A DNA stretch of 64,000 nucleotides from Methanoculleus horonobensis (GTDB taxonomy: Archaea > Halobacteriota > Methanomicrobia > Methanomicrobiales > Methanoculleaceae), in contig NZ_BCNY01000011.1 in NCBI RefSeq assembly GCF_001602375.1, positions 124,001 to 188,000 on the forward strand, in the 5' to 3' direction. Below are positions 26,532-55,662 of the stretch, piece by piece. Below the pieces are notes generated by a model, which searched no databases, had not been told where the DNA came from, and saw nothing but the letters and a program-made list of their open reading frames with translations. Numbering within the stretch: position 1 is the first letter of the stretch; the number at the start of each line of letters is the position of its first letter. A program made the translations under genes and the position numbers.

Positions 26532-26554
26532 GCTGCACCCAATGAATAGGATGT

Positions 26555-26586
26555 ATAACAGATGTGTTATATAACAATTTTGTTAT
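26555..26586. promoter_or_regulatory. Two adjacent ATAACA-N4-TGTTAT palindromes
   Basis: Two perfect 16-bp palindromes, ATAACA-GATG-TGTTAT (26555-26570) and ATAACA-ATTT-TGTTAT (26571-26586), abut each other 24 bases upstream of the AAA/winged-helix gene. The spacing of 16 bp is close to one and a half helical turns. They look like an operator for a dimeric winged-helix protein, most simply the gene's own product. Confidence 0.65.
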
Positions 26587-26676
26587 GTTCTGGAGATCCG
26601 GGGGGGGGCGGCTCATGGTGCGGTAAAAAGTAGAGGTTCCACCAGCTCAGGAGCGGACCGCCTCCAGTAGAGTGGT

Positions 26677-27069
26677 TCACTTTTGCAGCGTCTGGATCTG
26701 GATGAGGTTGCCGCAGGTGTCGTCGAAGGCCGCTATGGTCACCCGGTCGAGAATATCGGTCGGCTCCGTCGTGAATTTCACGCCCTGCGCTTTCAGCCCC
26801 TCATACTCCGCACGGACGTCCTCGACGCCGAAGGACGCGGCGGGGATGTCTTGTTCGAATATTCCTTTCTGGTACGCCTGTGCCACCGGATTGTCGTTCG
26901 GTTCGAGCAGCAGCTCGGTCCCGTTCCGGTCGTCGGGGGAGACGACGGTAAGCCACCGGTAGCCTTCGGCGGAGACGTCGCTCTTCTTCACGAAGCCGAG
27001 CGTTTCAGTGTAGAATTTCAGAGCCCTCTCCTGATCGTTCACAAATATACTGGCCAGTATGATCTTCAT
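26677..27069 (-). CDS. VOC-family (glyoxalase/bleomycin-resistance-like) protein
   Basis: A 130-residue protein of the vicinal oxygen chelate fold: IILASIFVNDQERALKFYTETLGF starts module one, and FGVEDVRAEYEGLKAQGVKF plus DDTCGNLIQIQ form module two. Members include lyases, dioxygenases and drug-binding proteins, so the substrate cannot be named. The expected first metal ligand (usually His/Gln in strand 1) is replaced by serine or valine, so it may be a binding protein. Confidence 0.82.
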   Translation of the reverse strand: MKIILASIFVNDQERALKFYTETLGFVKKSDVSAEGYRWLTVVSPDDRNGTELLLEPNDNPVAQAYQKGIFEQDIPAASFGVEDVRAEYEGLKAQGVKFTTEPTDILDRVTIAAFDDTCGNLIQIQTLQK

Positions 27070-36035: not shown

Positions 36036-37529
36036 ATGAACCCCGTCCGCATCTTCATCAGCAGCGTGCAGAAGGAGTTCGCCGACGAGCGGGCGGCTCT
36101 CCGCGACTACCTGCGGGGCGACGCACTGATGCGGCGGTTCTCCGAGGTCTTCCTCTTTGAGGAACTTCCGGCCGCCGACCGCCGCACCGACGTTGCATAC
36201 CTCGACGAAGTCCGGCGCTGCGACATTTATGTCGGGCTCTTCGGGAACGACTATGGTTACGAGAACACCGGAGGGCTCTCCCCGACCGAGCGGGAGTTCG
36301 ACCTCGCCACCGCCGAGGGGAAGTACCGGCTCATCTACGTCAGGGGCACGGACGACGCCGCCCGCCACCCGAAGATGCGTGCGCTTGTTCGCAGGGCGGA
36401 GGGCGGGCTGATCCGGAAGCGGTTTAACACCCCCTCGGAACTGGTCGCCGGGCTGTATGCGGCGCTCGTTGAGTACCTGGAGGAGAAGCAGCTCATCCGC
36501 TCCAGCCCCTTCGACGCGGCCCCGTGCATGAAGGCGACGCTCGACGACCTGGATCCCAAACGGATGGCGTGGTTCATCCGCACGGCCCGAGCGACCCGCC
36601 GGTTCCCCATCGCCCCCGATGCCTCTCCCCACGACCTGCTGGAGCACCTGAACCTGCTCGACGACGGCCGGGTGACGAACGCCGCGGCCCTCCTCTTCGG
36701 TAAACAACCGCAACGGTTCCTGATCTCCTCCGAGATCAAGTGCGCCCACTTCCACGGCACCGAGGTGGCCAAACCGATCCCCTCATACCAGGTCTACAAG
36801 GGTACGGTCTTCGATCTTGTGGACGCGGCGGCGGATTTCGTCTTGAGCAAGATCGCCCTCTCGGTAGGCACCCGCGAGGCCGGCCCGCAGGCCCCGGTGC
36901 GCTACGAGATCCCGAAGGAGGTTGTGGCGGAGGCGATCGTGAACGCCGTTGCCCACCGCGACTACACGAGCAACGGCAGTGTCCAGGTGATGCTCTTCTC
37001 CGACCGCCTGGAGATCTGGAACCCCGGCATCCTCCCGCCGTCCCTGACGCTCGAAAAACTCCGGCAGGCCCACGGGTCGGTGCCGGCGAACCCCCTCCTC
37101 GCCGAACCGATGTATCTCGCCGGCTACATCGAGCGGATGGGCACGGGGACGCGGGACATGATCCGGCACTGCACCGAGGCCGGGCTGCCCGAGCCGGAGT
37201 TTGCCGTCAGCGATGGGTTCCGGACGATTATTCGCCGGACTCTGGCTCCCGGCCAGACACCACAGCCAGAGTCACAGCCAGAGTCACTTGAAGCGAGAGT
37301 TCTGGTGCTCCTGAGTGTTGCCCCCAGGTCTAAAGCAGAATTATCAAGGGGGCTCGGACAGAAAGAGATCTCCGGTCAGCTGAATAAGGTCGTCCGTCAA
37401 CTACTGGCCGATCAGATGCTCGAGTACACCATCCCTGAGAAACCCGGCAGTCGGCATCAGAAGTACCGCCTGACTGAGAAGGGTCGGGCTACGGCAGCGA
37501 AACACGGTTCCGGAGGAGACACTCCGTGA
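36036..37529 (+). CDS. DUF4062 domain plus GHKL-type ATPase (RecG-like/AlbA-type) protein
   Basis: A 497-residue protein. Residues 1-150 are a DUF4062 domain (VRIFISSVQKEFADERAALR ... CDIYVGLFGNDYG), which occurs in NTPase and defence-type proteins. Residues about 180-400 match the AlbA_2/HATPase_c_4 'ATP-dependent DNA helicase RecG-like' regulators: EAIVNAVAHRDYTSNGSVQV, LEIWNPGILP and ERMGTGTRDMIRHC. A winged helix ends the chain (about 425-490). It may be a transcriptional regulator or a defence effector. The stop overlaps a hicB start by 4 nt, tying it to a toxin-antitoxin pair. Confidence 0.78.
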   Translation: MNPVRIFISSVQKEFADERAALRDYLRGDALMRRFSEVFLFEELPAADRRTDVAYLDEVRRCDIYVGLFGNDYGYENTGGLSPTEREFDLATAEGKYRLIYVRGTDDAARHPKMRALVRRAEGGLIRKRFNTPSELVAGLYAALVEYLEEKQLIRSSPFDAAPCMKATLDDLDPKRMAWFIRTARATRRFPIAPDASPHDLLEHLNLLDDGRVTNAAALLFGKQPQRFLISSEIKCAHFHGTEVAKPIPSYQVYKGTVFDLVDAAADFVLSKIALSVGTREAGPQAPVRYEIPKEVVAEAIVNAVAHRDYTSNGSVQVMLFSDRLEIWNPGILPPSLTLEKLRQAHGSVPANPLLAEPMYLAGYIERMGTGTRDMIRHCTEAGLPEPEFAVSDGFRTIIRRTLAPGQTPQPESQPESLEARVLVLLSVAPRSKAELSRGLGQKEISGQLNKVVRQLLADQMLEYTIPEKPGSRHQKYRLTEKGRATAAKHGSGGDTP

Positions 37530-41215: not shown

Positions 41216-41323
41216 GATCTCACCGATAGAATAGCATCTCTCTTTGTCGTGATAATACTTGACCAACAGATCCTGGCCGGTTGTCTCGTCTGTTATGAGT
41301 GGGCACACGATGCCTCGGGGAAG

Positions 41324-41372
41324 AATGAACGATGAATGAACGATGAATGAACGATGAATGAACGATGAATGA
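41324..41372. repeat. Tandem 11-bp repeat
   Basis: About four and a half copies of GATGAATGAAC stand in a row. It looks like a slippage array; it precedes the copied zinc-ribbon sequence and provides in-frame ATG codons. Confidence 0.8.
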
Positions 41373-42221: not shown

Positions 42222-43289
42222 ATGTCTAAACATATCCTTCTCGTCGAGCCCGACTATTATTCTCAGTTTCCCCCCATTGGATTATTAAAGTTGTCCAGTT
42301 ATCACAAAAATAAGGGGAATACCACCGAGTTAATCAGAGGGTGTAAATCCCCTGAAAAAAAACCGGACGCGATCTACATTACAAGTCTGTTCACATGGAC
42401 TTGGAAACCCGTTTGGGATGCAGTAAAATATTACAAAATGTGCTTTCCTGATTCTGAAGTCTGGCTCGGGGGAATCTATGCATCAGTACTACCAGAACAC
42501 GCACAGTTATCTGGAGCCGATCATATCTTCAGAGGTATTTTTCCTGAAGCAGAGGAGCTTCTGCCAGATTACAATTTAAGACCTAGTTGGGACGGTAGTA
42601 TTATTTTCTCATCGAGAGGCTGCAATAGGAAGTGTGGGTTTTGTGCTGTACCACGAATTGAAGGGAAATTAAATTCAGCAAAACCCTCGATTAAAAAGTA
42701 TGTTTGGCCGTCCCATACAAAAATAATCTTCTTTGACAACAATTTCCTCTGGAATCCGTACAAAGATCAAATATTCGAAGAACTTCGCGAAATTGGTCGA
42801 TTAGTAGACTTTAACCAGGGATTAGACGCGAGACTGATAACCGATGAAATTGCTCAAAACCTGAGTACACTTCCATTAGATATGAAAGCCGGAGTAAGAA
42901 TTGCTTATGATTCGGGAGAACAGAAGTCATCTGTTGAAGGAGCAATTCAGAGGCTACAAGAGAATGGAATATCAAAAAGGAAAGTTTTCGTGTATACATT
43001 GTTCAACTATAATGATAGCCCTGAAGAATTTTTAGAACGGGTTATAAATATTCTCAACTGGGGAGCCATCTGTTATCCGATGAGATATGAACCAGTATGC
43101 GCACTTGAAAAAAATCAATACATATCACCAAATTGGACAAAAGAGCAGTTAGAGGCTGTGCAAAAGGCTCGGCGTGTAATTGGGTTCAACGGTATTTTCC
43201 CACCCTATAAAGCTCTTATTAATAAATTTGAAAGTGCTGGGAATTTTGATGAAGCATTTGAATTGAGAGAACCAAAGGTGAACGAATAA
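42222..43289 (+). CDS. Radical SAM protein of defence island
   Basis: A 355-residue radical SAM enzyme. The N-terminal part (1-115) resembles the B12-binding-like Rossmann domain that precedes many radical SAM cores (HILLVEPDYYSQFPPIGLLK). The cluster motif is C134-x3-C138-x2-C141 in SSRGCNRKCGFCAVP. Downstream FFDNNFLW and a TIM-barrel-like pattern follow. ATG 42222 has GGAG 5 bases upstream. The chemistry is unknown; methylthiolation, methylation and ring-forming chemistry are all possible. It lies in tandem, with no gap, before a DGQHR protein (next ATG at 43290), suggesting one transcript and one modification pathway. Confidence 0.82.
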   Translation: MSKHILLVEPDYYSQFPPIGLLKLSSYHKNKGNTTELIRGCKSPEKKPDAIYITSLFTWTWKPVWDAVKYYKMCFPDSEVWLGGIYASVLPEHAQLSGADHIFRGIFPEAEELLPDYNLRPSWDGSIIFSSRGCNRKCGFCAVPRIEGKLNSAKPSIKKYVWPSHTKIIFFDNNFLWNPYKDQIFEELREIGRLVDFNQGLDARLITDEIAQNLSTLPLDMKAGVRIAYDSGEQKSSVEGAIQRLQENGISKRKVFVYTLFNYNDSPEEFLERVINILNWGAICYPMRYEPVCALEKNQYISPNWTKEQLEAVQKARRVIGFNGIFPPYKALINKFESAGNFDEAFELREPKVNE

Positions 43290-44714
43290 ATGATCTGTGC
43301 ATGCTGTGGAATGGAAATTGTAGGGAAATCTTATGGACCATATCATGATGACCAATACTATTGCAAACGATGTTGGGATGACCCAAGTTTGTTCTTCGCA
43401 GACAAACCAGTCACTGTTTTACAAGACTTTTTACGAGAAGGTTCGAATCTTACAGTGGAAAATCTAAACCTCATTGAGGTTATCGACCAATATCGAAAAC
43501 AATCGGTCAATCCGAAAAAAGGCCTCTTAAAAATTTGGGAACAGATACTTGGTAAATGTTTCATTGAAATACCCGTTATTCAAGCACACCAAATGAATAT
43601 TACCCTTTATTTCGGAAAAATCAAGGCATATGAACTGTTACTATTATCCTCTGTGGATCAATGGACAGAGAGTGAATGCATTGGGTATCAGCGTGTTCAG
43701 TTCAAATCGAAGAGGAAAGAAATCAAGGATTACTTAAAGATGTGCCCGATCCCACTCGTTCCGGCTATCCTTGGAAGTATCAATGAAGGGGAATTTCTAT
43801 CGACCAACGAACATTTCGGTACACTGAGATTTCCAGTTCTCCCTGGAGCAATCTCTTTGCTAGATGGTCAACAGCGGACAGGTGGTTTTGATGAACTGTT
43901 TTACGAATTCAAGGGATATCTTAAGAAAAACCCCTCGAATATAAAAACAGATATAATTGAGAAATACTTTGATTTGTTCAATTTCGAACTTCCAATTGTC
44001 TTCCTTGATTCTGCTGATATCGCAAAGAAAATTAACCTGATTGAAACGAATTCGAAACACGTGGAACCCTTGGACGTTGAAAGGGCCTTCTTTATAATTA
44101 TCAACAAAACCCAGAAGGCTGTTAACGCATCGCTCAAAGATGAGCTAGCCTACAAAACAATAGAGGCCGGGATAAGAGGCATACCTGTTATCGAAAAAGA
44201 CATGTGGAGAACAGAGATTATACCCATTGCAAACTATCTGAATGGGGAAAATGGCCCTCTAAATTGTCTTATTAACTTGGGGGGCATCCCGGGACTTAAG
44301 AAACCGATTCAACTGAATGGATTTGTTACTTCACTCAAAATGCTTTTTATCTCCAATGATTCCTTTAAAGAACTAGACGCAGAAACAAAAAGCAAATTTT
44401 TATGTGCGTATTGGGAGACAATCCGAGATTTATTCCCGGATGCATTCGACAGGCAACACTACGATAAATACCTGCTAACCAAATCAATTGGAATATATTC
44501 TTTGAACTATTTAGCAAATGACGTTTTCAACCAGTGCATCAGTAATGGACTAGACCCTTGCGATAAACAAACAATCGCGGGATATCTTTACCCACTCAAA
44601 GGGTTCGATTGGAGCGTAGAATCGTCTCCGTTTACTTATTTAGCAGGAAAAAAGGGAGTGAAAAAAGCAAAAGAAATGATGTCAGAGTTTATTTGTACCC
44701 ACTCCCATGCTTAA
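43290..44714 (+). CDS. DGQHR-domain (DndB-like/ParB-like) protein with N-terminal zinc finger
   Basis: A 474-residue protein. The N terminus has a zinc-ribbon pair (C3/C6 and C25/C28). The core includes LLDGQQRTGGF (D192-R196), the DGQHR signature that DndB and relatives share with ParB-like nuclease folds, and helical C-terminal segments. DGQHR proteins regulate or guide DNA modification (phosphorothioate DndB, deazapurine DpdB). It starts immediately after the radical SAM stop, so the two are a unit. Whether it binds, nicks or senses modified DNA cannot be told from sequence. Confidence 0.7.
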   Translation: MICACCGMEIVGKSYGPYHDDQYYCKRCWDDPSLFFADKPVTVLQDFLREGSNLTVENLNLIEVIDQYRKQSVNPKKGLLKIWEQILGKCFIEIPVIQAHQMNITLYFGKIKAYELLLLSSVDQWTESECIGYQRVQFKSKRKEIKDYLKMCPIPLVPAILGSINEGEFLSTNEHFGTLRFPVLPGAISLLDGQQRTGGFDELFYEFKGYLKKNPSNIKTDIIEKYFDLFNFELPIVFLDSADIAKKINLIETNSKHVEPLDVERAFFIIINKTQKAVNASLKDELAYKTIEAGIRGIPVIEKDMWRTEIIPIANYLNGENGPLNCLINLGGIPGLKKPIQLNGFVTSLKMLFISNDSFKELDAETKSKFLCAYWETIRDLFPDAFDRQHYDKYLLTKSIGIYSLNYLANDVFNQCISNGLDPCDKQTIAGYLYPLKGFDWSVESSPFTYLAGKKGVKKAKEMMSEFICTHSHA

Positions 44715-44752
44715 AAGATGTGCTTTCACTAGTGGGCACCTCTATTCTTAAT

Positions 44753-45646
44753 GAGGTCATCCCAATCTTCTCCCGATCATGACACTACATGCCAAGTGGA
44801 TCAATCCCATGAATGAGCGTTCATATCGCTCGTAACGTGGAACGATCATCTTAAACGCCTCAATCCAACTGAAGAACCGCTCTATTGCACTGCGCATTTT
44901 ATAGAGTTCTAGATCAAACCAGAATGGCCTCCCTCGTTTTGGATGTCTCCGGGATCTCCGGTTGACCGGGATATTGCTCTTGATTCCTCGTTTCCGGTTG
45001 TACTGGCGAATCTCTCGGGCATCATAGGCTGCATCTGCCGAGAGGATCGTGGGGTGATCCTGCACCTCCGGAATCTCAAATGCTTCGAGGATTGGTTCAT
45101 AGAGCTGTGAACCATGGACATTGGCAGGTGAAACCGTGCAGACAAGCGGGAGACCGTTCCGATCGACCAGAGCACTCAGTTTGTTCCCATTTACCTTTTT
45201 ATAGCCATCATAGCCAGTCGATTCCCCTTTTTGTTTGAATATCCTTGGTGTCCGTCGCACAGTGCGAGAGATCGACACGGAAACTGCCCTGCAGTTTCCT
45301 GTCAGGAAAATCTCTGATTTTCCGTGTTTTTCGGATCTCGTGCCCGGATTGGAGCAGGTCGAGGATGATCGCCTGGTACACTCCCTTCTCGCATAATTCA
45401 AGGTGGTACCGATGAACCGTTGATTTGGTGCCGTAGTTCGCCGGAACATCGTGCCAGGTGCAGCCGGTGGTCAGGACGTATAGGATGCCGTTGAACAACC
45501 CGCGGGGGTCACGCCGCGGTCGACCGATGTGCGGCTTTGTTGGAGGGAGGTATTTCCGGACAATCGCCCAGAGATCGTCGTCAATTTCCCGGAAGGCTAT
45601 ACCCCGGAGTATTATATAAGAGGCCTTATAGGTTTGGGACGACCTC
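44753..45646 (-). mobile_element. IS5-family insertion sequence, decayed
   Basis: An element of about 894 bp bounded by imperfect 13-bp inverted repeats (GAGGTCATCCCAA at 44753-44765; TTGGGACGACCTC at 45634-45646). Its GC-richness contrasts with the AT-rich island, so it came from elsewhere after the island arrived. No clear target duplication is visible. It separates the radical SAM/DGQHR pair from the DISARM-like operon. Confidence 0.75.
44757..45585 (-). pseudogene. IS5-type transposase, frameshifted
   Basis: Two frames join into one DDE transposase. The first half (45208-45585) has DDLWAIVRKYLPPTKPHIGR, CTWHDVPANYGTKSTVHRY, then SHCATDTKDIQTKRG. The second half (44757 to about 45230) has GYDGYKKVNGNKLSALVDRN, LSADAAYDAREIRQYN and FFSWIEAFKMIVPRYER. 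The break falls at a run AAAAAGGGG and requires +1, not the usual -1 slip, so it is likely a mutation. No ATG is found at the N terminus either. Confidence 0.85.
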
Positions 45647-45754
45647 TCTGTATGACCACGTTTTTCGCAGTATACCTTATCTCCAATGGTACATGTTCGA
45701 TACGAATAAGTATCATTTATATATGTCGAAGAGGAGGTTTAAATACGTGAAACT

Positions 45755-48700
45755 ATGGACGTCGCTTCAGAATATCGGTTTGCTGACAACCTTGTCCAAT
45801 ATATAGCAGCTAGAATGTCTGGAACCCACGATGATGATTCTATCATCAGTGAAAAGCCGAGTAAATATTTCATTCTCGGATGCCTTGCGGCCCAACGGCT
45901 TAGGGACCGTATTAATGAAGTTGATGAGCCCGATAACTATGATTCAGACAAAAAAGCTGCCTCAATTCGAGCTCAACAAAGCCGAGTGTCCTTATTATTA
46001 ACTAAAAGCAGCATAACTGAAGAGTCTAGTCTTTCAATAACTGCTACAGGTCACGTATATTATAAGGTCCGGCCAGATCGCAATGAAGAGGAAACAACTC
46101 AGCGTTACCTCTGGAAGAAGTGTCCTTTCATTCATTCGTGCCATGTAAATGTACTACCTTTAGTTTCTCAAGCCGAGTGTCATCAGAACTCTTTCACCGA
46201 GCATTTTAACTTTGCCGAAACTATTGGCGTTATCAATAGCGATCCGTCAAAGAAAACCAGTGTTCCACTAGGGACTTGGCAAGCGGATATCTCTGTGCAA
46301 ATAAATGAATACGATGAAGAACGGTTGATTATCACAATCACTTTTTGTAATAAAAGTGTGGAGCCAGAATCAGTGGACGACTTTGAGCGAACATTGTTTA
46401 ATTGCCTGATCAAAGTCAAGCTAGATTCCCTTATCACGAGTGAGTTTCAAGATGAGTATCTTTACGAAGGGCATCACCAGAAGTACCATTACGATTTCCG
46501 TACGATTAATTGCCAAGCAAGTTGGATTTCAGAGGGTGAGTCCTTTATAACTCACCATTATGGTTATTTTGAACAAGAAAACGTTAGACCTAAAGAATCT
46601 ACTAAGGGTATTACGTTTCAATTCAATGATTTAATTTGTGACGAAACAGCAGTTCCAATTCTGGATAACTTCTTACATGAGCTGGATCTAACATACAAGA
46701 CATATAGAGACGCCTTTCCTGATGGTGTAGACGATCATGAATACAAGCCGCGGGAAGGGCATAAGGAGAGAACTTGGGGTGAACAACTACAGCAGATATC
46801 TCACTTTAAAGACCTTCTTGGACGTGTCAGTCAAGGAGTGAATTTAATCAAGTGTGACCCTAAAGCCAAAGAGGCATTTTATAAGACAAATCTGTCTTTT
46901 GATAATTATTACAGTAATAATGGCACCCCGGGAGCCGGTTGGCGAATATTTCAGTTGACCTTTATCCTTGCAAGCCTCCCTTCTGTTGTACAAGAAATTT
47001 ATCTTGATACAGTTGATGTGCTACACGTCGATACTGGAGGAGGAAAATCTGAGGCCTATTTTGGGTTGGTGCTATTCACTGCATTTTATGATAGAATCAA
47101 CAACAAGAAAGAGGGAGTTAGTGCTATTGTAAAGTTTCCTTTGAGAATGCTCTCAATTCAGCAACTAGAGAGATTGTCTAGCCTCATCATTCATGCAGAT
47201 GCAGTCCGTGCGCAACATTCCCAAGTTTTCCCAGGAGAAGTATTCTCTCTTGGTTATTATGTTGGTAATCAAAGTGATGATTTTCCAAAGACCTACAAGG
47301 AGGTCAAGAAGAAGTTATATTCTGGGAAATCACTTTTAACGCCAGCTCCAGAATCACTGATTGTATCTAAGTGTCCCTTATGTGCAGCAGAACTGAATAG
47401 TAAAGTAAGACTAATTGACGACCCTGCACGAAGTAGAGTGATTCATAAGTGTGATCAGTGCAATAAGGAGTTCTATATCTACTTTAGCGACTACGAAATC
47501 TTCCGTTGGAGACCCACTGTTATAGTATCTACTGTCGATAAATGGGCCAGTTTGGCTCAGCAAAGGCGAGTTAGAGCTCTCCTTGGAGGTAGAGGCAGTC
47601 TATGCTCAGAGGGTCATGGGTTCATAATCTCGGGAAACAATTGTCAAACTAATAGTAAAGATGAAGCATTCCATTGTGAGCACATTGGTGAATCGCGTCC
47701 TAGTTCAGATGGGCCACGTTTGTCAATTCAAGATGAAATGCACTTACTACGAGAGGGATTCGGAACAATATCTTCTCATTTTGAAGGCCTCATCGAATCG
47801 ATAGTCAAACATACGTCTGGTCGACAGTTGAAACATATCTCAATGAGTGCGACGTTAAATGGTACATCTGGTCAGATACAGGAATTATATCTGAAAAACA
47901 CCTTTGTCATTCCGGGAAGGTGTCCTGAAGGTGTCGGTAGCAGTGATGATGTTTTCTTTGAGAGAAGAACCGGCCCAAAAAGGGTTATCTATGGGTTTAA
48001 GCCGAATCTAAGAGATAATCACTATGCGACATTGAGAACTTTACTTCACTATGCGGAATTCATAATCAACGCGCAGTCTAGCCTAAACACGGATCCAGAT
48101 GGCTTCTGTGAAGAATACTTATTAGAGAGTGTTAACAGTGCGCAGGTATTGATAAAACAATTTATTATCCCCTTAACATATCATTTGAAAAAACAGGATG
48201 CATATGACATGCAGCGCCTACAAGATGCTGTGGTTGCAGAACCACTCACTCAGCATTATGGTGCAGGTGTCGAAGGTGTACCGTTAACAGGTGATGACTC
48301 TTTAGAGGAGTTAAAACAAACTATCGATGATATCAAGAGTTATGTTGCTGAGTATTCTCCCGACCTAATTGAAAATCATCAGTTCACTCTAAAGCCAATC
48401 TACTCAACGTCTGTTGTCTCTCACGGTGTAGACCTTGAAGAGTTAAATTTTATGGTGTTTCAAGGAATTCCGTATTCTACAGCTGAATACATCCAAGCTC
48501 TTTCAAGGGTTGGCAGGAAACATCTAGGGATTGTCCTTGTTTGGTTTTATCCAAATCGGGTTCGTGATGATAGTTTTTTCAGGAATTTTTCTCGATATCA
48601 TGACACATTAGACCATCAAGTTAGACCAGTCCCCATAAATAGGTCCTCTCGATTGGGTGTATATCAGACATTAAACTCAATGTTTTGTGCAAGTGTGTTG

Positions 48701-49039
48701 ACTTATATGTCAGATCTTAAAGGAAAGCCACTATATCAAAAGCGAGATATTGCTGACCTTACCCTAGAAGATAAAGAAAGAATTGTGCAATTTATGTATA
48801 ATGCTTACGGCAGCAACGTTCTGGATGTAAACCTCCGAAAGGAGGTAGAAGAACGGATCAATGAAGTTGTTTTAGGTCAAGGTAGTAATTCTGACTTCTT
48901 CCCAAAATTACTAGCTAAAACGGGAGATCAACTATATAGAAATCAGTCTGGGATGAGAGGAATACAGAATAACTTGGGACTAGTTCTGGTTGAAGAAGAT
49001 CGAAGATATTTGACAGAAAGGAGGGAATCAAATGAATAA
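45755..49039 (+). CDS. drmA: DrmA-like DISARM helicase
   Basis: A 1094-residue helicase. Walker A DTGGGKSE (D426-E433), DEMH box (660-663), SMSATL (motif III) and a C-terminal helicase half with STSVVSHGVDLEELNFMVFQ, then AEYIQALSRVGRK (motif VI near 914-923) are all present. Size, glycine-rich Walker A and its position before a DUF1998 gene match DrmA, the helicase of DISARM. Four cysteines (C374-like region, CPLCAAEL...CDQCNKEF) form a zinc insert. ATG 45755 is used; GAGGAGG lies upstream at 45731. It overlaps drmB by 8 nt. Confidence 0.82.
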   Translation: MDVASEYRFADNLVQYIAARMSGTHDDDSIISEKPSKYFILGCLAAQRLRDRINEVDEPDNYDSDKKAASIRAQQSRVSLLLTKSSITEESSLSITATGHVYYKVRPDRNEEETTQRYLWKKCPFIHSCHVNVLPLVSQAECHQNSFTEHFNFAETIGVINSDPSKKTSVPLGTWQADISVQINEYDEERLIITITFCNKSVEPESVDDFERTLFNCLIKVKLDSLITSEFQDEYLYEGHHQKYHYDFRTINCQASWISEGESFITHHYGYFEQENVRPKESTKGITFQFNDLICDETAVPILDNFLHELDLTYKTYRDAFPDGVDDHEYKPREGHKERTWGEQLQQISHFKDLLGRVSQGVNLIKCDPKAKEAFYKTNLSFDNYYSNNGTPGAGWRIFQLTFILASLPSVVQEIYLDTVDVLHVDTGGGKSEAYFGLVLFTAFYDRINNKKEGVSAIVKFPLRMLSIQQLERLSSLIIHADAVRAQHSQVFPGEVFSLGYYVGNQSDDFPKTYKEVKKKLYSGKSLLTPAPESLIVSKCPLCAAELNSKVRLIDDPARSRVIHKCDQCNKEFYIYFSDYEIFRWRPTVIVSTVDKWASLAQQRRVRALLGGRGSLCSEGHGFIISGNNCQTNSKDEAFHCEHIGESRPSSDGPRLSIQDEMHLLREGFGTISSHFEGLIESIVKHTSGRQLKHISMSATLNGTSGQIQELYLKNTFVIPGRCPEGVGSSDDVFFERRTGPKRVIYGFKPNLRDNHYATLRTLLHYAEFIINAQSSLNTDPDGFCEEYLLESVNSAQVLIKQFIIPLTYHLKKQDAYDMQRLQDAVVAEPLTQHYGAGVEGVPLTGDDSLEELKQTIDDIKSYVAEYSPDLIENHQFTLKPIYSTSVVSHGVDLEELNFMVFQGIPYSTAEYIQALSRVGRKHLGIVLVWFYPNRVRDDSFFRNFSRYHDTLDHQVRPVPINRSSRLGVYQTLNSMFCASVLTYMSDLKGKPLYQKRDIADLTLEDKERIVQFMYNAYGSNVLDVNLRKEVEERINEVVLGQGSNSDFFPKLLAKTGDQLYRNQSGMRGIQNNLGLVLVEEDRRYLTERRESNE

Positions 49040-50975
49040 ATTTGAGCACTCTATCCCCGAAAGTAGCGCTTTCTTCCAGGGGCATATCGATCAGTACTTT
49101 TCTAAAAGTAAGATGAGTTATCAGGTCATTTTAAATTTTGAGGATCGAATTCAGGCCGATAACTTTAACGTCCCGAAATTCCGTCCAATCTTCTGTAGAA
49201 TAATCAACAAATTCATTGCTTTAAGGGCTAGAGATGGTTGGGAGCAACATCAAATTCTTTCTGACCAACTCAAGTTACAAGCGGTAAAATTTGTAGATAA
49301 TATAAAAGAAGAGATTTCAGGTTATTATAGGATTGAGTCGAGAACAGCAATTTGCAGAAAAAAATTACCTAATAATCAATATTGTAACCATTATTTCGAA
49401 TTGGGTGAACCAAGAGGATGCGGGCATAACAGCACCGAACCTTTTAAACAAATTACATTTATCGCATACTGTGACGAATGTGGGAGAACGGCTCCACTCC
49501 ATTGGATGACGAACCTTCGAAATAACTGTCCAACATGTCATGCAGAAAGAAGCCTAAATATTCTTCTCTGGGATAAATCGGACTCAATATCTACATACAA
49601 AGTAAAATGTACTCAATGTGGTCACGAAGCAAAGTTGTACTTCATATCTTGCGATCATTATATCAGAAATTCACAGAAAACGTTGTCCATCAAACCACGA
49701 AGACGATTCAAAGGTGTTGCAATAAGGGCTTCAACAATAATTCATCCTCTTGTGTATTCTATTCCAGATATTCCTAATGGAGAGGAAATTGATAATTCCG
49801 GGAGGCGGAATACACAAGGGAGAAATTTTTCAGAAGCTTTTCACGCATTATTCCCTGAATTCGAGGGAGAACACCACCTTTTTTTGCCCGAATTTAGGGC
49901 TAATGTGATCAATACTGAGGAATTCTGGGTTTTATCAAGAATCATCACTTCATGTGATGATTTAAATTTAGACGTTCAGATAAAAACCCAATGGTCACAA
50001 ACCCAATTTATAAATTTAATGAAAACTGTAATAAAAACCGCTAACCACCTTATCGATGCGGGAGGTGATTCAGCTACGGTTATAGCGCGATATGGCATTA
50101 ATTTAATAGAACGTGCTTTAACCAATACGAATGATATAGATTTTGATGAAAACGACTTACAGGGAATATACTTAGGTATGCATCCATCCAGTGGGCAGAA
50201 TGCTGATTCACCATTACTCCCAAAAAAACAGCTCATACCAAACTTAAAACCAAATGACTATCCCCAGTTTCTAAAGAGGTTTGGATTAAAGGAGATAATG
50301 CATATTGCGAATTTCAACATGGTTCAAGCCGTTCTAGGAACGATTAAAGGTTCGACACGGCGAGAACCTCTTCTTTTTGATCCAGTTTTCACAGGAGTTG
50401 GCGATTCCAGAAGACCGACAGTATTTGTAAGGGAATTTTTAACGGAAGGAATTCTTTTCCATCTCGATTATGGCAAAATTTTGGAGTGGGCTGAAGCAAA
50501 CAAAATGTACATCGATGAGAGTCTTCAAACTGATCTTAATGACAATAATGAGGAGACTCGATATCGATCTTTAATAACTTATAACAATGAATTTAAAGAC
50601 GCTGTTTACACTCTGTTGCATACATATTCTCACATGTTAATTCAGCAATCAACTATAAATACAGGATTAGATATCCAAAGTCTTGCGGAGATTGTTTATC
50701 CAAAAAGTGCATCATTTTTCATATACTCAACAAGTAGCATTAACATTGGCGGACTTGAAGACACATATCACTATCATCTTGAAGATTGGCTTCATAGAAC
50801 CGTCGACCTCGCTTTGGATTGCCCACAAGATCCGGCATGTATGATCCATGAGGGCGGTTCCTGTAACGCTTGTAGTTATCTCCCGGAGTTTGTGTGTGAG
50901 AACTTCAACCAAAACCTTGATCGATCAGCCTTAATCGGAGGACCCAGGTACACTCGTGGGTATCTTTCGCAATGA
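49032..50975 (+). CDS. drmB: DrmB-like DUF1998 protein
   Basis: A 647-residue protein. Several zinc-knuckle pairs in the N-terminal third (CDECGRTAP...CPTC; CTQCGHEA...C) precede a C-terminal DUF1998 domain (about 525-640): LLHTYSHMLIQQSTINTGLD, ASFFIYSTSSINIGGLED, then C-rich CPQDPACMIHEGGSCNACSY. This architecture is DrmB, the partner of DrmA in the DISARM core that blocks and processes entering DNA. Start overlaps drmA by 8 nt; stop overlaps drmC by 4 nt (ATGA). Confidence 0.83.
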   Translation: MNKFEHSIPESSAFFQGHIDQYFSKSKMSYQVILNFEDRIQADNFNVPKFRPIFCRIINKFIALRARDGWEQHQILSDQLKLQAVKFVDNIKEEISGYYRIESRTAICRKKLPNNQYCNHYFELGEPRGCGHNSTEPFKQITFIAYCDECGRTAPLHWMTNLRNNCPTCHAERSLNILLWDKSDSISTYKVKCTQCGHEAKLYFISCDHYIRNSQKTLSIKPRRRFKGVAIRASTIIHPLVYSIPDIPNGEEIDNSGRRNTQGRNFSEAFHALFPEFEGEHHLFLPEFRANVINTEEFWVLSRIITSCDDLNLDVQIKTQWSQTQFINLMKTVIKTANHLIDAGGDSATVIARYGINLIERALTNTNDIDFDENDLQGIYLGMHPSSGQNADSPLLPKKQLIPNLKPNDYPQFLKRFGLKEIMHIANFNMVQAVLGTIKGSTRREPLLFDPVFTGVGDSRRPTVFVREFLTEGILFHLDYGKILEWAEANKMYIDESLQTDLNDNNEETRYRSLITYNNEFKDAVYTLLHTYSHMLIQQSTINTGLDIQSLAEIVYPKSASFFIYSTSSINIGGLEDTYHYHLEDWLHRTVDLALDCPQDPACMIHEGGSCNACSYLPEFVCENFNQNLDRSALIGGPRYTRGYLSQ

Positions 50976-51775
50976 TTAATCCTAGTGTTCATAAAAGGAT
51001 CATGGAGTATATCCAATCATACCTATCAGAACATGATACTGCTACGATAGAAGATTTGCTACGTAATTACCATAAGTCAGCTCCAATAAGCGAGTTCGAA
51101 TTAAAGCGAGTAATAACCACAGGAATTGAGGAGGGGTACCTAAAAGCTGAAAAAAGTGCTGCAGATAAGTACAGCACTTTAATATCTCAAATTAAAACCT
51201 ATCAACCAGAGGAGTTACTAAACTCAGTTGTCGTTGTAATCTCGAAGCCTAGACTACGTGAACTTAGCTTATCTGGAATTGAGTATCGTAATCAGTTTAT
51301 TGAAACTACCGAGTGTTTTCAACAAGTTATTTCATCTGCAAATTATACATTACGAATATGTTCACCTTTTTTACAAAAGGATGTAATTCAGGAGGATGCA
51401 TATCCTGAATTAGAGCACCACCTATCGGAGGCGCTGCTTAGGGGTGTAAAGGTTCGAATATTAACTCGAGAACTTATTGAAAGGCGATATGCTGAAGTGT
51501 CCTGGATAAAAGAACTCGCCAGAGCATTAGAGTTAGAGAATAGTGTCACAATTGTTGATTACCATCATATCTCTGATACTGGAAAAGTGATTTCAAGTAC
51601 GCACGCCAAGATGCTAATTGCCGACAGTGATGTTGCGTACATCGGAAGTGCAGAGTTAAGACGTAATAGTCTAATTGCCAACTTCGAAGTCGGATGTTTA
51701 CTTTCTGGCCCCGTCGTATTTGGGGTTTGTGAAGTGTTTGATTCTATGTATTCTAACGGACGCGTTGTTCTATGA
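50972..51775 (+). CDS. drmC: DrmC-like phospholipase-D-fold nuclease
   Basis: A 267-residue protein. The N-terminal ~70 residues are a small helical (winged-helix-like) domain; the rest is a single PLD domain, with a CSPFLQKD strand and the HxK signature STHAKMLIADSDVAYIGSAE near residues 210-229. Fits DrmC, the PLD nuclease of DISARM; a single HKD motif would need a dimer. It is coupled to drmB and to the next gene by ATGA overlaps. Confidence 0.82.
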   Translation: MINPSVHKRIMEYIQSYLSEHDTATIEDLLRNYHKSAPISEFELKRVITTGIEEGYLKAEKSAADKYSTLISQIKTYQPEELLNSVVVVISKPRLRELSLSGIEYRNQFIETTECFQQVISSANYTLRICSPFLQKDVIQEDAYPELEHHLSEALLRGVKVRILTRELIERRYAEVSWIKELARALELENSVTIVDYHHISDTGKVISSTHAKMLIADSDVAYIGSAELRRNSLIANFEVGCLLSGPVVFGVCEVFDSMYSNGRVVL

Positions 51776-54700
51776 ATAAGCTACGCTCGATGGAATATAT
51801 TGACAAGGATCATACCGAAGAAATATTAAATATCGAGAATAATAGGCTATCTTCAACATTATCTCCGTTCTCGTTGGAAATTATTAACGCAGTTTTTACT
51901 CATCAAATCACAGTGATACTGTCCCAAGGCTCACTGAATATCACACCTCTAGTCGCATGTTTATACGCATATAATCAGAATCATGATGTACTAATAGGCA
52001 TACCGAAAGCGAGATTTGATGAAGTTTATAAAGGATACACTCGAACTTATTTTTCACTAACATATCGAAAAGCCATTAACAACATCCTTTCTAATCCCTT
52101 CTTTTTCTATACAGACATGTTTTGGTGTAAAGGAAGGGTTGATGCTTCAAACAATGTTTTAACGAATATCGACATCGAGACCAACCCAACTTATGGTAGA
52201 AGAGATTTCAAGGAGAGATACAACAGTTTAATGAAACAAAAACTAGTTAATGGTCTAACTAATCAAAATCCGATTTTACTGAATATACCAATTGAAACTT
52301 CTCTCCCCTCAAACATCATTGGAGAAAGTAAGATCACTTTCTTAATGACTGAATATAAGTCACTTAATTATGACCCCCACCTAATTATTTTTGAATCAAT
52401 TAACGAAAGACAATTTGAATTCGAACACTTACTAGGAATTTCTGAAAACATTAGAATCTCAGGCAAGAAGTTGTTACTCCATTTTTCTTGGCCATATCTG
52501 CATGGATTAAATTCATTTATAGGCAAATTAAGGGAAACTTATCAGGATAACATTGCAGTGTTTCATTTCGGAAAACGACTTTGCTTTGAACTGAAGGAGA
52601 CGCTTAATAAGCCTCCAGAATCGCTTTTACATCTCTCACTAGAGGGGAACCAGTGGGATAGTGTATACTACCCAGATGAAAGCACATTACCTTCGATAGA
52701 AGTCTACTTGCCTTATGTAGAACAGATTAGCAAAGATTGCGATACTGTTAGTATTGCTGACATGACGTGGCCATTTGACGAGGTTTTGCGGGATATATGG
52801 CGAATGAGTATAACTGAAGATGCATTTTCGAACGTGGTAAAGAATATCTTGAAATTCCCTCCTGTGATAGATGCATTTCTTCACCCATCTGAGCTCAAAG
52901 TTAAGAGTTACATTGAAGCCATACACTCTTGGAGATATATCCCGATAAAGGAATATTTACTAGATCAAACATCCATCGATGAAAATCATGTTCTCCCCGT
53001 TTATGGCATCTTTTCAGATTTAGACTCCTGTAAAGATTTCTCTCGTTACCTCCGTGGCCTTCATACCAACGCTTCACCAAGTAAAAAAACGCTCTTTCAG
53101 ATGCTTCTTTTTGAATATCTTCAAAATAGCATAAATCAACTGGTCAATACTAGTAATGATTCAGATCTACAAAGTTCTTTAACCAAATTTATTATTGCAA
53201 GGACCCATCCATATTTTGAAACTCGTAGAGGTATCTTCGATTCGATCCAATATTTCTTCTCAGGGATAAGTACAATATTAAGCCATGATGCATTACCAAG
53301 AGCAGTAAGAAAAGGAAAGAAAATCTATGTAAAGATCCATACAAAAGAGTTTGAAGTATTTAATGGGAAAAGACTGATTGTTGATAGATTTTCTTTTGAG
53401 CAAGTATTAACCCAATATCTAAGATTACCATTGGAAGTATCTCAAAACGTTAGAGGTGAGTCGCTAACCCTTTTAGTTTCGGTTAAACTGTGTGAACGTT
53501 ATATTAAACTCGGAAGAACCTCTCGTGGAATGGAGGCAAAGAAACAATTTCTTGACAGACTCTATATCTACAGGTTAGATGTTGAACCAGATGGTAGTTT
53601 CTCTGAGTTTATCCTTTCAAACATCGCTGTAAAATCCAATATCTATTCCAACAAATTTGAAGTGTCTCTTGACGTAAGCGTGAATGGTCCGGGTTGTACA
53701 AAGCAGGCAACGGTCGCTATGCAATTTTCACATCAGGACTTATCGAGTTTAAGTAGATTAAACAAAGATACGATACAACAATCTATTTTACTGGTTCCAG
53801 GGCCTGTTCCATTTCAAACGATTACAGATAGTGGCATCATCATTACCAAAGGATATGCATCATTGCTACTACCATTCAAAAAAACAATTCTCTTTTCGTA
53901 CCCAGGAATCAATTTTAAACGCATATCCCGACAAATATGGGTGCTTGAACAACTATATAAGGAAGAGTTAACTGACGTATCCAGAAGAGATCTTTCATAC
54001 TCCCTTCAGCAAACCCATAAATGCCACATAATTGAACTACCAACGTTACGTGAGCAATCTGATGGATCCCTTGACCAGTTAATTAATGGGGATACGCCCT
54101 TTGACGCTGCAGTAAGGGAAGAGTTGACCAATGAATGCACTGCACGTGATGATGATGAAAAACAAGAGATCAGCACTCTAAAAGATATTTGGCAGAAATT
54201 GAAAGCGGATTCAGCGCAAAAAGGGTTGCCATCACCTCAAAGCAGGCCATTTTATTCGAATTGCGATCTGTTGCCGATTCGTGTTCGATTTGAAAACGGC
54301 ACTGTGGAACAAATTGCCTTTTCAAGAGGTACACTCATTCGAAGGAAAATCAATGGTAAGTATCTACTTTGCCCCATTGAGGATCTTAACATCGGTGACG
54401 AAATCCTGTGCGTTGAAACAAGTGATAAAATGAGTATTGATAATTATGTGCTGAAAGACTATTTCGATGACCAAGATTTGTCAATGGAGCAGATTTTAGA
54501 ACCATTTACTTGCCTTAAACTCTTTTATCATGCTCTACATTCAATAAATCTACAACAATCTTGTTCCATTTCCGAACTGAGAAACCTCTACTGGCTCCCG
54601 GACAAAGATAAAGAAGTATTAATCAGAACGATTTCCTCTTCTTTAAATCAATATGTTGAGGATAACCAGGAGAATAACTTTGAAAGCAATAATTTTTGGT

Positions 54701-55101
54701 ATCCAGTTATTTCGATGGACGAGCTAAAGAAAGTATTTGGTAAGAATGGCAATCGAATAACTTACTCAAAAACATTTCGGATAGCAAAAAGATTAGGTAT
54801 TTCTATTGCAGAGAATACCTTTAATCAATACTGTTCTCTAGCATTAAATGAAGAAAATCATTATTTCTTCAAAAACTCAAAGGATTTACTTGCTCTCGGT
54901 CGATTAATGAAACATACTGAAATCTGCAATGATTATGAGACAATCAATGATATGGGTCGAAAAGTTGGCAGGATCTTACAAATAATCGGTCAGAGCATTT
55001 CAAGAGTGACTAGTGGGAACTCAGAATTACTTAACGAATTGGATATCGGGATTGAGAAAGTAATTAAGAAATGCATAATTATCGACAAAATTGATTCATG
55101 A
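51772..55101 (+). CDS. drmE: Large protein, probable DrmE-like DISARM component
   Basis: A 1109-residue protein, last in the four-gene coupled unit (ATGA with drmC). The N-terminal half has an ATPase/helicase-like flavour (HQITVILSQGSLNITPLVAC) without a canonical Walker A. The centre and C terminus are unique; NGKYLLCPIEDLNIGDEILC near residues 860-885 is the most distinctive stretch. Class 2 DISARM has a large uncharacterised protein DrmE with the same partners, so I assign it by context plus size. I do not recognise a catalytic domain, and the assignment is not certain. Confidence 0.6.
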   Translation: MNKLRSMEYIDKDHTEEILNIENNRLSSTLSPFSLEIINAVFTHQITVILSQGSLNITPLVACLYAYNQNHDVLIGIPKARFDEVYKGYTRTYFSLTYRKAINNILSNPFFFYTDMFWCKGRVDASNNVLTNIDIETNPTYGRRDFKERYNSLMKQKLVNGLTNQNPILLNIPIETSLPSNIIGESKITFLMTEYKSLNYDPHLIIFESINERQFEFEHLLGISENIRISGKKLLLHFSWPYLHGLNSFIGKLRETYQDNIAVFHFGKRLCFELKETLNKPPESLLHLSLEGNQWDSVYYPDESTLPSIEVYLPYVEQISKDCDTVSIADMTWPFDEVLRDIWRMSITEDAFSNVVKNILKFPPVIDAFLHPSELKVKSYIEAIHSWRYIPIKEYLLDQTSIDENHVLPVYGIFSDLDSCKDFSRYLRGLHTNASPSKKTLFQMLLFEYLQNSINQLVNTSNDSDLQSSLTKFIIARTHPYFETRRGIFDSIQYFFSGISTILSHDALPRAVRKGKKIYVKIHTKEFEVFNGKRLIVDRFSFEQVLTQYLRLPLEVSQNVRGESLTLLVSVKLCERYIKLGRTSRGMEAKKQFLDRLYIYRLDVEPDGSFSEFILSNIAVKSNIYSNKFEVSLDVSVNGPGCTKQATVAMQFSHQDLSSLSRLNKDTIQQSILLVPGPVPFQTITDSGIIITKGYASLLLPFKKTILFSYPGINFKRISRQIWVLEQLYKEELTDVSRRDLSYSLQQTHKCHIIELPTLREQSDGSLDQLINGDTPFDAAVREELTNECTARDDDEKQEISTLKDIWQKLKADSAQKGLPSPQSRPFYSNCDLLPIRVRFENGTVEQIAFSRGTLIRRKINGKYLLCPIEDLNIGDEILCVETSDKMSIDNYVLKDYFDDQDLSMEQILEPFTCLKLFYHALHSINLQQSCSISELRNLYWLPDKDKEVLIRTISSSLNQYVEDNQENNFESNNFWYPVISMDELKKVFGKNGNRITYSKTFRIAKRLGISIAENTFNQYCSLALNEENHYFFKNSKDLLALGRLMKHTEICNDYETINDMGRKVGRILQIIGQSISRVTSGNSELLNELDIGIEKVIKKCIIIDKIDS

Positions 55102-55590: not shown

Positions 55591-55662
55591 TGGACCGAGC
55601 GGGAATTGAACCCGCGGCCTCTACCATGCCAAGGTAGCGATCTACCCCTGATCTATCGGCCC
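55591..55662 (-). tRNA. tRNA-Ala (anticodon GGC)
   Basis: A 72-nt cloverleaf on the minus strand. The acceptor pairs GGGCCGA with TCGGTCC, then A73. The anticodon stem CTACC/GGTAG holds loop TTGGCAT, so the anticodon is GGC. The T arm is GCGGG-TTCAATT-CCCGC. CCA is not encoded. It flanks the right end of the transferred island and is a plausible integration landmark, although I found no repeated 3' end on the other side. Confidence 0.93.

What the first reader, a model, noticed from the sequence alone, without database searches (positions are those of the whole stretch)
42222..55101. DISARM-like core (drmA, drmB, drmC, drmE) with no methyltransferase, paired with radical SAM and DGQHR proteins
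Sequence: four coupled genes encode a DrmA-type helicase, a DUF1998 protein, a PLD nuclease and a 1109-residue protein. Directly upstream is a radical SAM enzyme adjacent to a DGQHR protein. No DNA methylase appears anywhere in the island. Established: DISARM normally includes a DNA methylase that marks self. DGQHR proteins (DndB, DpdB) occur in DNA-modification systems. Inference: the radical SAM/DGQHR pair may replace methylation with another self-mark, giving a hybrid defence system. Alternatively the island marks nothing and DrmA-E work alone.
Basis: partly seen in the sequence, partly recalled or inferred. Interest (0 to 1): 0.87.

Follow-up and report, generated by a model that had tools for sequence, protein, structure and literature searches.

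The report
Swappable radical-SAM self-marking cassette, archaeal defence
In a methane-producing archaeon, a virus-defence gene cluster lacks the usual DNA-methylating enzyme and instead carries a two-gene cassette (a radical SAM enzyme plus a DNA-associated helper) that, in related microbes, is repeatedly swapped between different DNA-attack machines, which suggests a still unknown chemical way of marking DNA as self.

Summary
The gene content is as described. A low-GC island beside tRNA-Ala encodes radical SAM (rSAM), DGQHR, DrmA, DrmB, a DrmC-type PLD nuclease and an 1109-aa protein, with no methylase. The name drmE fails: the 1109-aa protein matches no DrmE model, and an IS transposase now sits between the pair and drmA. 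The proposed link is real. In 232 genomes of the order, all 10 DGQHR loci have the same rSAM directly upstream, and all 10 adjoin a restriction module: drmABC plus the 1109-aa protein (5), PbeA/PbeC genes (3), or a nuclease-like/DndB/HEPN protein (2). The pair tree needs 5 partner switches. The 10 Pbe loci without the pair carry phosphorothioation genes; the three with it carry none. Three of four canonical DISARMs in the order carry a methylase. Alphaproteobacterial plasmids have a diverged pair, in one case beside the same nuclease-like/DndB/HEPN partner. The pair therefore sits where a DNA-modification module normally sits. The likeliest reading is that rSAM-DGQHR installs a non-methyl DNA mark and DrmABC restricts unmarked DNA. 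Linkage and swapping are shown; the mark, its chemistry and antiviral activity are inferred. One relative (G514) has drmA, drmB and the 1109-aa gene without the pair.

The parts
42222..43289 (+). radical SAM enzyme, 355 aa; B12-binding-type Rossmann domain plus radical SAM barrel; CxxxCxxC at C134/C138/C141
   Evidence: PHROG 9298 E 4.8e-65; motif invariant in 33 homologues; pLDDT 94.2; AprD4 Z 26.3, MgmA 23.1, TsrM 22, MiaB 21
43290..44714 (+). DGQHR (ParB/DndB/DpdB-like) protein, 474 aa, with N-terminal four-cysteine zinc-ribbon-like motif
   Evidence: TIGR03187 E 5.2e-21; DndB 2.5e-8; DpdB 3e-11, far below the DpdB cut-off; alignment
44757..45449 (-). DDE transposase of an insertion sequence, placed between the pair and drmA
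   Evidence: DDE_Tnp_1 E 6.6e-18; the short sister intergenic region aligns only to the drmA side
45755..49039 (+). DrmA-type (YprA-family) helicase, 1094 aa; Walker A GGGKS
   Evidence: PADLOC DrmA E 2.6e-92; NF038325 E 3.6e-83, below cut-off
49032..50975 (+). DrmB-family (DUF1998/MZB) protein, 647 aa
   Evidence: DrmB E 5.6e-24; NF038324 E 4.7e-25, below cut-off
50972..51775 (+). DrmC-type phospholipase-D-fold nuclease, 267 aa, one HKD-type motif (HAKMLIAD)
   Evidence: PLDc_2 E 8.7e-14; DrmC E 8.3e-13
51772..55101 (+). 1109-aa protein in the drmE position; no detectable relation to DrmE; conserved partner in 6 genomes of the order
   Evidence: no DrmE hit; homologues in G080, G466, G282, G486, G514; no similarity to DrmE
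55591..55662 (-). tRNA-Ala(GGC) at the right edge of the low-GC island; GC rises from about 0.37 to 0.6 here

Best explanation
The island is a restriction-modification-like antiviral system in which the usual methyltransferase is replaced by an exchangeable two-gene DNA-marking module. The DGQHR protein (ParB/DndB fold family, zinc-ribbon N-terminus) engages DNA and presents sites to the adjacent radical SAM enzyme, which makes a radical-based, non-methyltransferase-type change to a nucleotide of host DNA. DrmAB loads on and translocates unmarked invading DNA, the PLD protein DrmC helps to destroy it, and the 1109-aa protein links restriction to recognition. Shown here: gene content, invariable pairing, linkage to restriction modules, repeated partner exchange, occupation of the place of phosphorothioation genes next to PbeA/PbeC and of methylase in a DISARM-like cluster, and the rSAM fold with its intact cluster motif. 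Inferred: that the substrate is DNA, the chemistry, the roles of DGQHR and of the 1109-aa protein, and antiviral function.
For: Pairing: the same rSAM is directly upstream of DGQHR in 10 of 10 full-length loci in 9 of 232 genomes. Linkage: DrmABC plus the 1109-aa protein adjacent in 5 loci, in either order (before the pair in G282 and G486, after it in window, G080 and G466); 5 of 6 genomes with the 1109-aa gene hold the pair (hypergeometric 1.4e-7, ignoring relatedness). Replacement: three loci carry PbeA/PbeC-type genes (PADLOC E 5e-223 and 6e-121 for G183; TIGR04095) beside the pair with no dndA/C/D; the 10 Pbe loci without the pair carry DndD-like and IscS/DndA-like genes, most with DndC; DndC is above cut-off in only 1 of the 10 genomes examined, at another locus. 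PbeABCD activity was shown to depend on DNA modification (PMC6459918). Swapping: the pair tree needs 5 partner changes against a minimum of 2, at well-supported nodes. Between the window and M. sediminis, four-fold sites are 28-35% identical in rSAM/DGQHR but 77-84% in drmABC, so the two blocks have separate histories. Bacteria: DGQHR-rSAM-HATPase cassettes in Rhizobium, Mesorhizobium, Bradyrhizobium, Roseomonas and Novosphingobium plasmids, no methylase annotated; in pNL1 beside a 769-aa homologue (31% over 756 aa, E 3e-106) of the archaeal third partner. No C5-methylase genome-wide in 8 of 10 genomes. Dpd precedent: DpdB, a ParB-like ATPase, works with the base-inserting DpdA (PMC12839542).
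Against: No chemistry was measured. G514 has drmA, drmB and the 1109-aa gene without drmC, pair or methylase nearby, so that core can persist without a linked mark. All genomes carry unlinked N4/N6 methylases. Most phage homologues of the rSAM have no ParB/DGQHR neighbour (4 of 80). The IS element may uncouple the pair from drmA in this strain. DndB is reported as a regulator of phosphorothioation, so DGQHR need not be catalytic. The partner-switch count does not exceed label shuffles; it shows exchange, not preference.
Confidence: 0.6

Rival explanations
1. The pair is a defence module that does not mark DNA: rSAM makes a modified nucleotide or small molecule (viperin-like in logic) or modifies a protein or RNA, and DGQHR senses infection or degrades nucleotides; the restriction modules are co-selected partners or triggers.
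For: ParB/Srx proteins have been proposed as nucleotide-degrading effectors (PMC10853773, PMC12839542); prokaryotic viperins are rSAM antiviral enzymes (PMC12926258). Close structural neighbours of the rSAM include small-molecule enzymes (AprD4 Z 26.3, OxsB).
Against: Does not explain why the pair stands in for phosphorothioation genes beside PbeA/PbeC and appears with DISARM genes that lack a methylase. Viperin matches only the barrel (Z 9.7) and lacks the B12-type domain.
Confidence: 0.2
2. DrmABC and the 1109-aa protein need no mark (DrmAB selects DNA by structure, such as 5' overhangs), and the pair is an independent defence system parked beside it.
For: DrmAB prefers 5'-overhang DNA, and DISARM can act on phage lacking methylation sites (PMC9142583). 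G514 lacks the pair.
Against: 5 of 6 genomes with the 1109-aa gene have the pair adjacent, in two different gene orders; all 10 pair loci adjoin a restriction module.
Confidence: 0.09
3. A methyltransferase encoded elsewhere in the genome supplies the self-mark in trans and the pair has an accessory role.
For: All 10 genomes examined carry unlinked N4/N6 methylase genes.
Against: No methylase in any of the pair loci; 8 of 10 genomes, G183, G282 and G335 among them, have no C5-methylase.
Confidence: 0.08

Closest known systems
DISARM (class 2: drmE-drmA-drmB-drmC-drmMII)
   Same: DrmA, DrmB and DrmC relatives in an overlapping operon with a fourth large gene
   Different: no methylase, no recognisable DrmE, drmA only about 30% identical to canonical DISARM DrmA of the same order; rSAM-DGQHR linked
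Dnd-Pbe (DndCDEA-PbeABCD phosphorothioation defence)
   Same: modification module plus separable restriction module; sister loci G183, G335b and G484 have PbeA/PbeC-type genes next to the pair
   Different: no DndC in those genomes; rSAM-DGQHR stands in its place
Dpd (7-deazaguanine DNA modification)
   Same: a DGQHR/ParB-like protein (DpdB) works with a TIM-barrel base-modifying enzyme; PLD and DUF1998-type helicase genes in the restriction part
   Different: no TGT (DpdA) in the locus; the nearest TGT is 60 kb or more away in the examined genomes; rSAM instead
BRIGADE (PMC12458937)
   Same: archaeal hybrid of a base-modification module with YprA-type helicases and PLD nuclease
   Different: BRIGADE has a 7-deazaguanine biosynthetic cluster and was found only in halophilic archaea; the paper mentions neither radical SAM nor DGQHR
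AprD4, MgmA, TsrM, MiaB (radical SAM enzymes)
   Same: whole-length fold, Z 21-26
   Different: 11-18% identity; different substrates; the rSAM here has no recognisable DxHxxG cobalamin motif and no conserved extra cysteines for an auxiliary cluster

Membership tests
DISARM | DrmA and DrmB core | tested here: met
   PADLOC DrmA E 2.6e-92, DrmB E 5.6e-24; both below the NCBIfam equivalog cut-offs, so divergent
DISARM | DrmC phospholipase-D protein | tested here: met
DISARM | DNA methyltransferase DrmMI or DrmMII in the operon | tested here: not met
   none in the operon or flanks in any of the 5 related loci
DISARM | class gene DrmD or DrmE | tested here: not met
   no model hit, no profile similarity to DrmE; a fold-level relation was not tested
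Dpd | DpdA transglycosylase in the cluster | tested here: not met
   no TGT near any pair locus
Dpd | DpdB | tested here: not met
   41.8 bits against a cut-off of 300
Dnd phosphorothioation | DndC sulfurtransferase | tested here: not met
   below cut-off in the window's genome
BRIGADE | 7-deazaguanine DNA-modification genes in the cluster | tested here: not met
   no TGT in the cluster
Viperin-type antiviral radical SAM | viperin family sequence or fold | tested here: inconclusive
   viperin aligns to the barrel only, Z 9.7 against 26.3 for AprD4
Restriction-modification by DNA marking (function) | a chemical mark on host DNA that depends on the module | not testable with these tools
   needs nucleoside LC-MS/MS or sequencing of native DNA

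The most novel reading that the evidence does not exclude
rSAM-DGQHR is a previously undescribed DNA-modification module, found in methanogens and in Alphaproteobacteria, that marks host DNA by radical chemistry and acts as an exchangeable modification half for at least three unrelated restriction halves (DrmABC, Pbe, and a nuclease-like/DndB/HEPN protein).
Probability: 0.55. Interest if true: 0.93.

Novelty: new variant of a known kind. Interest (0 to 1): 0.8.

Why it matters
Known self-marks in DNA-based immunity are methylation, phosphorothioation and 7-deazaguanine. A radical SAM module that stands in for the first two would be a fourth chemistry, would account for some of the PbeAC loci reported as solitary (165 of 553 with no modification component nearby in PMC6459918), and would show how restriction and modification halves are recombined. 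It is directly testable: one archaeal carrier is a named strain (M. sediminis S3Fa), and a bacterial cassette lies on the conjugative plasmid pNL1 of Novosphingobium aromaticivorans.

Tried and rejected
DGQHR structure: model too weak (mean pLDDT 59.7), not used for fold search. DrmE identity: HMM scans, whole-profile and split-profile hhalign all negative. Integration repeats (att) around tRNA-Ala: none of 18 nt or more; IS terminal repeats not found. DGQHR in viral contigs: none. rSAM in viral contigs: many distant homologues, but neighbour clusters were general phage genes and ParB-like genes were found in only 4 of 80 loci, so phage context says little about substrate. PDB sequence search for the rSAM gave only a single PPR-like helical hairpin at residues 326-353, taken as coincidental. 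Literature: no paper in the held library describes rSAM with DGQHR/DndB in defence; most subscription papers are not held, so absence is not proof.
Full report
What is in the window. The window is G000:C11:124001-188000 of a 2.45-Mb genome. Its nearest relative carrying this system is G080, whose contig of 186,898 bases has the same length as NZ_JXOJ01000003.1, Methanoculleus sediminis S3Fa, in the same genus; the genome is therefore a methanogenic archaeon. A low-GC stretch (about 0.36-0.46 against 0.6-0.68 around it) runs from about 41.5 to 55.5 kb and ends beside tRNA-Ala. It holds rSAM, DGQHR, an insertion-sequence transposase on the other strand, then drmA, drmB, a drmC-type PLD gene and a gene for an 1109-aa protein, the last four overlapping by 4-8 bases. 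All six system ORFs are intact.

Gene identities. DrmA, DrmB and DrmC are recognised by PADLOC (E 2.6e-92, 5.6e-24, 8.3e-13) but lie below the NCBIfam cut-offs for DISARM proteins: divergent relatives. The 1109-aa protein is not recognisable as DrmE by any library. True DrmE (NF038316) occurs in the same order in canonical DISARM loci, and profile comparison between the two families finds nothing. The DGQHR protein passes the TIGR03187 cut-off, has weak DndB and DpdB similarity, and carries a four-cysteine zinc-ribbon-like N-terminus. The rSAM has invariant CxxxCxxC in 33 homologues. Its model is confident (mean pLDDT 94.2) and aligns over its whole length with AprD4 (Z 26.3), MgmA, TsrM and MiaB, that is, with radical SAM enzymes bearing a B12-binding-type domain; no DxHxxG cobalamin motif is visible in the sequence. 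Whether it binds cobalamin is open.

Is the pair linked to the drm genes by more than chance? In 232 genomes of the order, a DGQHR profile finds 10 full-length loci in 9 genomes (plus a weak hit in G401, not followed), and each of the 10 has a 58-75% identical rSAM directly upstream. Five loci (window, G080, G466, G282, G486) have drmABC plus the 1109-aa gene adjacent, with the pair upstream in three and downstream in two. Only six genomes have the 1109-aa gene; five of them hold the pair (hypergeometric 1.4e-7, not corrected for relatedness). The sixth, G514, has drmA, drmB and the 1109-aa gene, no drmC, no pair, and no methylase found nearby: a real exception.

What else does the pair associate with? 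G183, G335 (one copy) and G484 have it next to a PLD-helicase, a DndD/CxC-type ATPase and a small protein. In G183 the first two are PbeA (E 5e-223) and PbeC (E 6e-121), TIGR04095 'DNA phosphorothioation system restriction enzyme'; the G335 small protein matches dnd_assoc_4. In the order, 10 further loci hold the same PLD-helicase and ATPase without the pair; these carry a second, DndD-like ATPase and an IscS/DndA-like gene, and most carry DndC within the stretch read (representatives confirmed). The three loci with the pair have none of these, and DndC is above cut-off in only one of the ten pair-or-core genomes examined, G486, at a separate locus. G335 (second copy) and G452 have the pair followed by a 780-791-aa protein with an ECK-containing, nuclease-like N-terminal region (read from sequence), a DndB domain and a weak HEPN match. 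Xiong et al. showed that PbeABCD restricts only when DNA modification is present, and noted PbeAC loci with no known modification genes (PMC6459918); Rakesh et al. note that such systems can recruit methylases instead (PMC10853773). The rSAM-DGQHR pair fits that empty place.

Exchange. A tree of the concatenated pair needs five changes of partner type over ten loci (minimum two), with near-identical pairs bearing different partners: G282/DrmABC against G183/Pbe, G466/DrmABC against G452/DndB-HEPN, and the two copies in G335. Label shuffles give similar counts, so this shows frequent exchange and not a preference. Between the window and M. sediminis, four-fold degenerate sites agree at 35% and 28% in rSAM and DGQHR, 50% in the 1109-aa gene, and 77-84% in drmABC. 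The drmABC block has thus moved between these lineages separately from the pair. Such mosaicism is what modification and restriction halves of a system would show.

Bacteria. Plasmids of Rhizobium, Mesorhizobium, Bradyrhizobium, Agrobacterium, Roseomonas and Novosphingobium carry an rSAM about 28% identical to this one next to a DGQHR protein; in the loci read an HATPase follows, often with an SNF2-type helicase, ParB-like proteins and a PIN protein, and no annotated methylase. On pNL1 the neighbour of this cassette is a 769-aa protein homologous over 756 aa (E 3e-106) to the archaeal DndB-HEPN partner. The same partnership across the archaeal-bacterial divide argues for a functional unit.

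No methylase. No C5-methylase is encoded in 8 of the 10 genomes examined; G000 and G080 have them on other contigs. N4/N6-methylases exist in all ten genomes, but none lies in the pair loci. No TGT lies near the loci. In the same order, canonical DISARM loci of a different DrmA clade (30% identity) carry true DrmE plus a methylase in three of four cases: G509 (C5, family hit), G049 (C5, by clustering with G509) and G408 (adenine type, family hit); G362 has none in 19 kb. This is the nearest thing to a control.

Mechanism. DrmAB of Serratia is stimulated by unmethylated DNA and loads on 5' overhangs (PMC9142583). In Dpd, a ParB-like protein (DpdB) works with the base-inserting enzyme DpdA (PMC12839542). 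By analogy, DGQHR would hold or open DNA while rSAM changes a nucleotide, and DrmAB with the PLD nuclease would act on unmarked DNA. The steps from 'pair' to 'mark on DNA' are inference. I put 0.6 on it, 0.2 on a non-marking role of the pair, and less on the drm core working alone or on a methylase in trans.

Membership. It is not filed as DISARM, because the methylase and the class gene DrmD/DrmE were tested and not met; it is DISARM-like in its restriction half. It is not Dpd, Dnd or BRIGADE. The closest published hybrids (BRIGADE, PMC12458937) use 7-deazaguanine. No paper in the held library describes this pair in defence; that library lacks most subscription journals.

Noticed in passing
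window 44757-45449 (-): An IS-type DDE transposase sits between DGQHR and drmA; the sister locus has about 250 bp there. It may uncouple transcription of the two halves in this strain.
   Followed up: partly
L175 7627-10662 (G000:C13, about 312.6-315.7 kb): The same genome has a second unusual defence-like island: a DpdA-like TGT (PADLOC E 1.7e-10) followed by a BrxD-like ATPase (2.7e-11), near a Cas4-like 1062-aa protein on the other strand; reminiscent of the TGT-containing BREX-related systems in PMC12839542.
   Followed up: partly
L022 9803-11098: A viral-contig rSAM (48% identity) is fused to an N-terminal zinc ribbon that resembles the one on the archaeal DGQHR protein.
   Followed up: no
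L117 7998-9080 (Marinitoga camini virus 1): An annotated tailed virus encodes an rSAM 48% identical to the window's, listed as hypothetical protein; it could be a counter-defence modification enzyme.
   Followed up: no
L173 7727-10749 (G452:C53): A solo rSAM (48%) followed by an HATPase-type protein, without DGQHR; an HATPase-type protein also lies next to the pair in G282 and on bacterial plasmids.
   Followed up: partly
L154/L155 (G514): drmA, drmB and the 1109-aa gene with no drmC and no pair, followed by a 1275-aa protein that looks like a helicase-nuclease; several transposase-like genes nearby.
   Followed up: partly
window 42222-43289, residues 326-353 of rSAM: The C-terminal hairpin scores against designed PPR repeat proteins (E about 1e-9); only one repeat, probably coincidental.
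   Followed up: no
window 41307-41372: An 11-bp tandem repeat (ACGATGAATGA) at the left edge of the island.
   Followed up: no
window 36036-37529 (+): A 497-aa ORF in the flank has a homologue of about 500 aa in the G080 flank (25460-26962) and homologues in other loci of the order; by sequence it looks like a DUF4062/ATP-binding protein, suggesting a defence hotspot.
   Followed up: no
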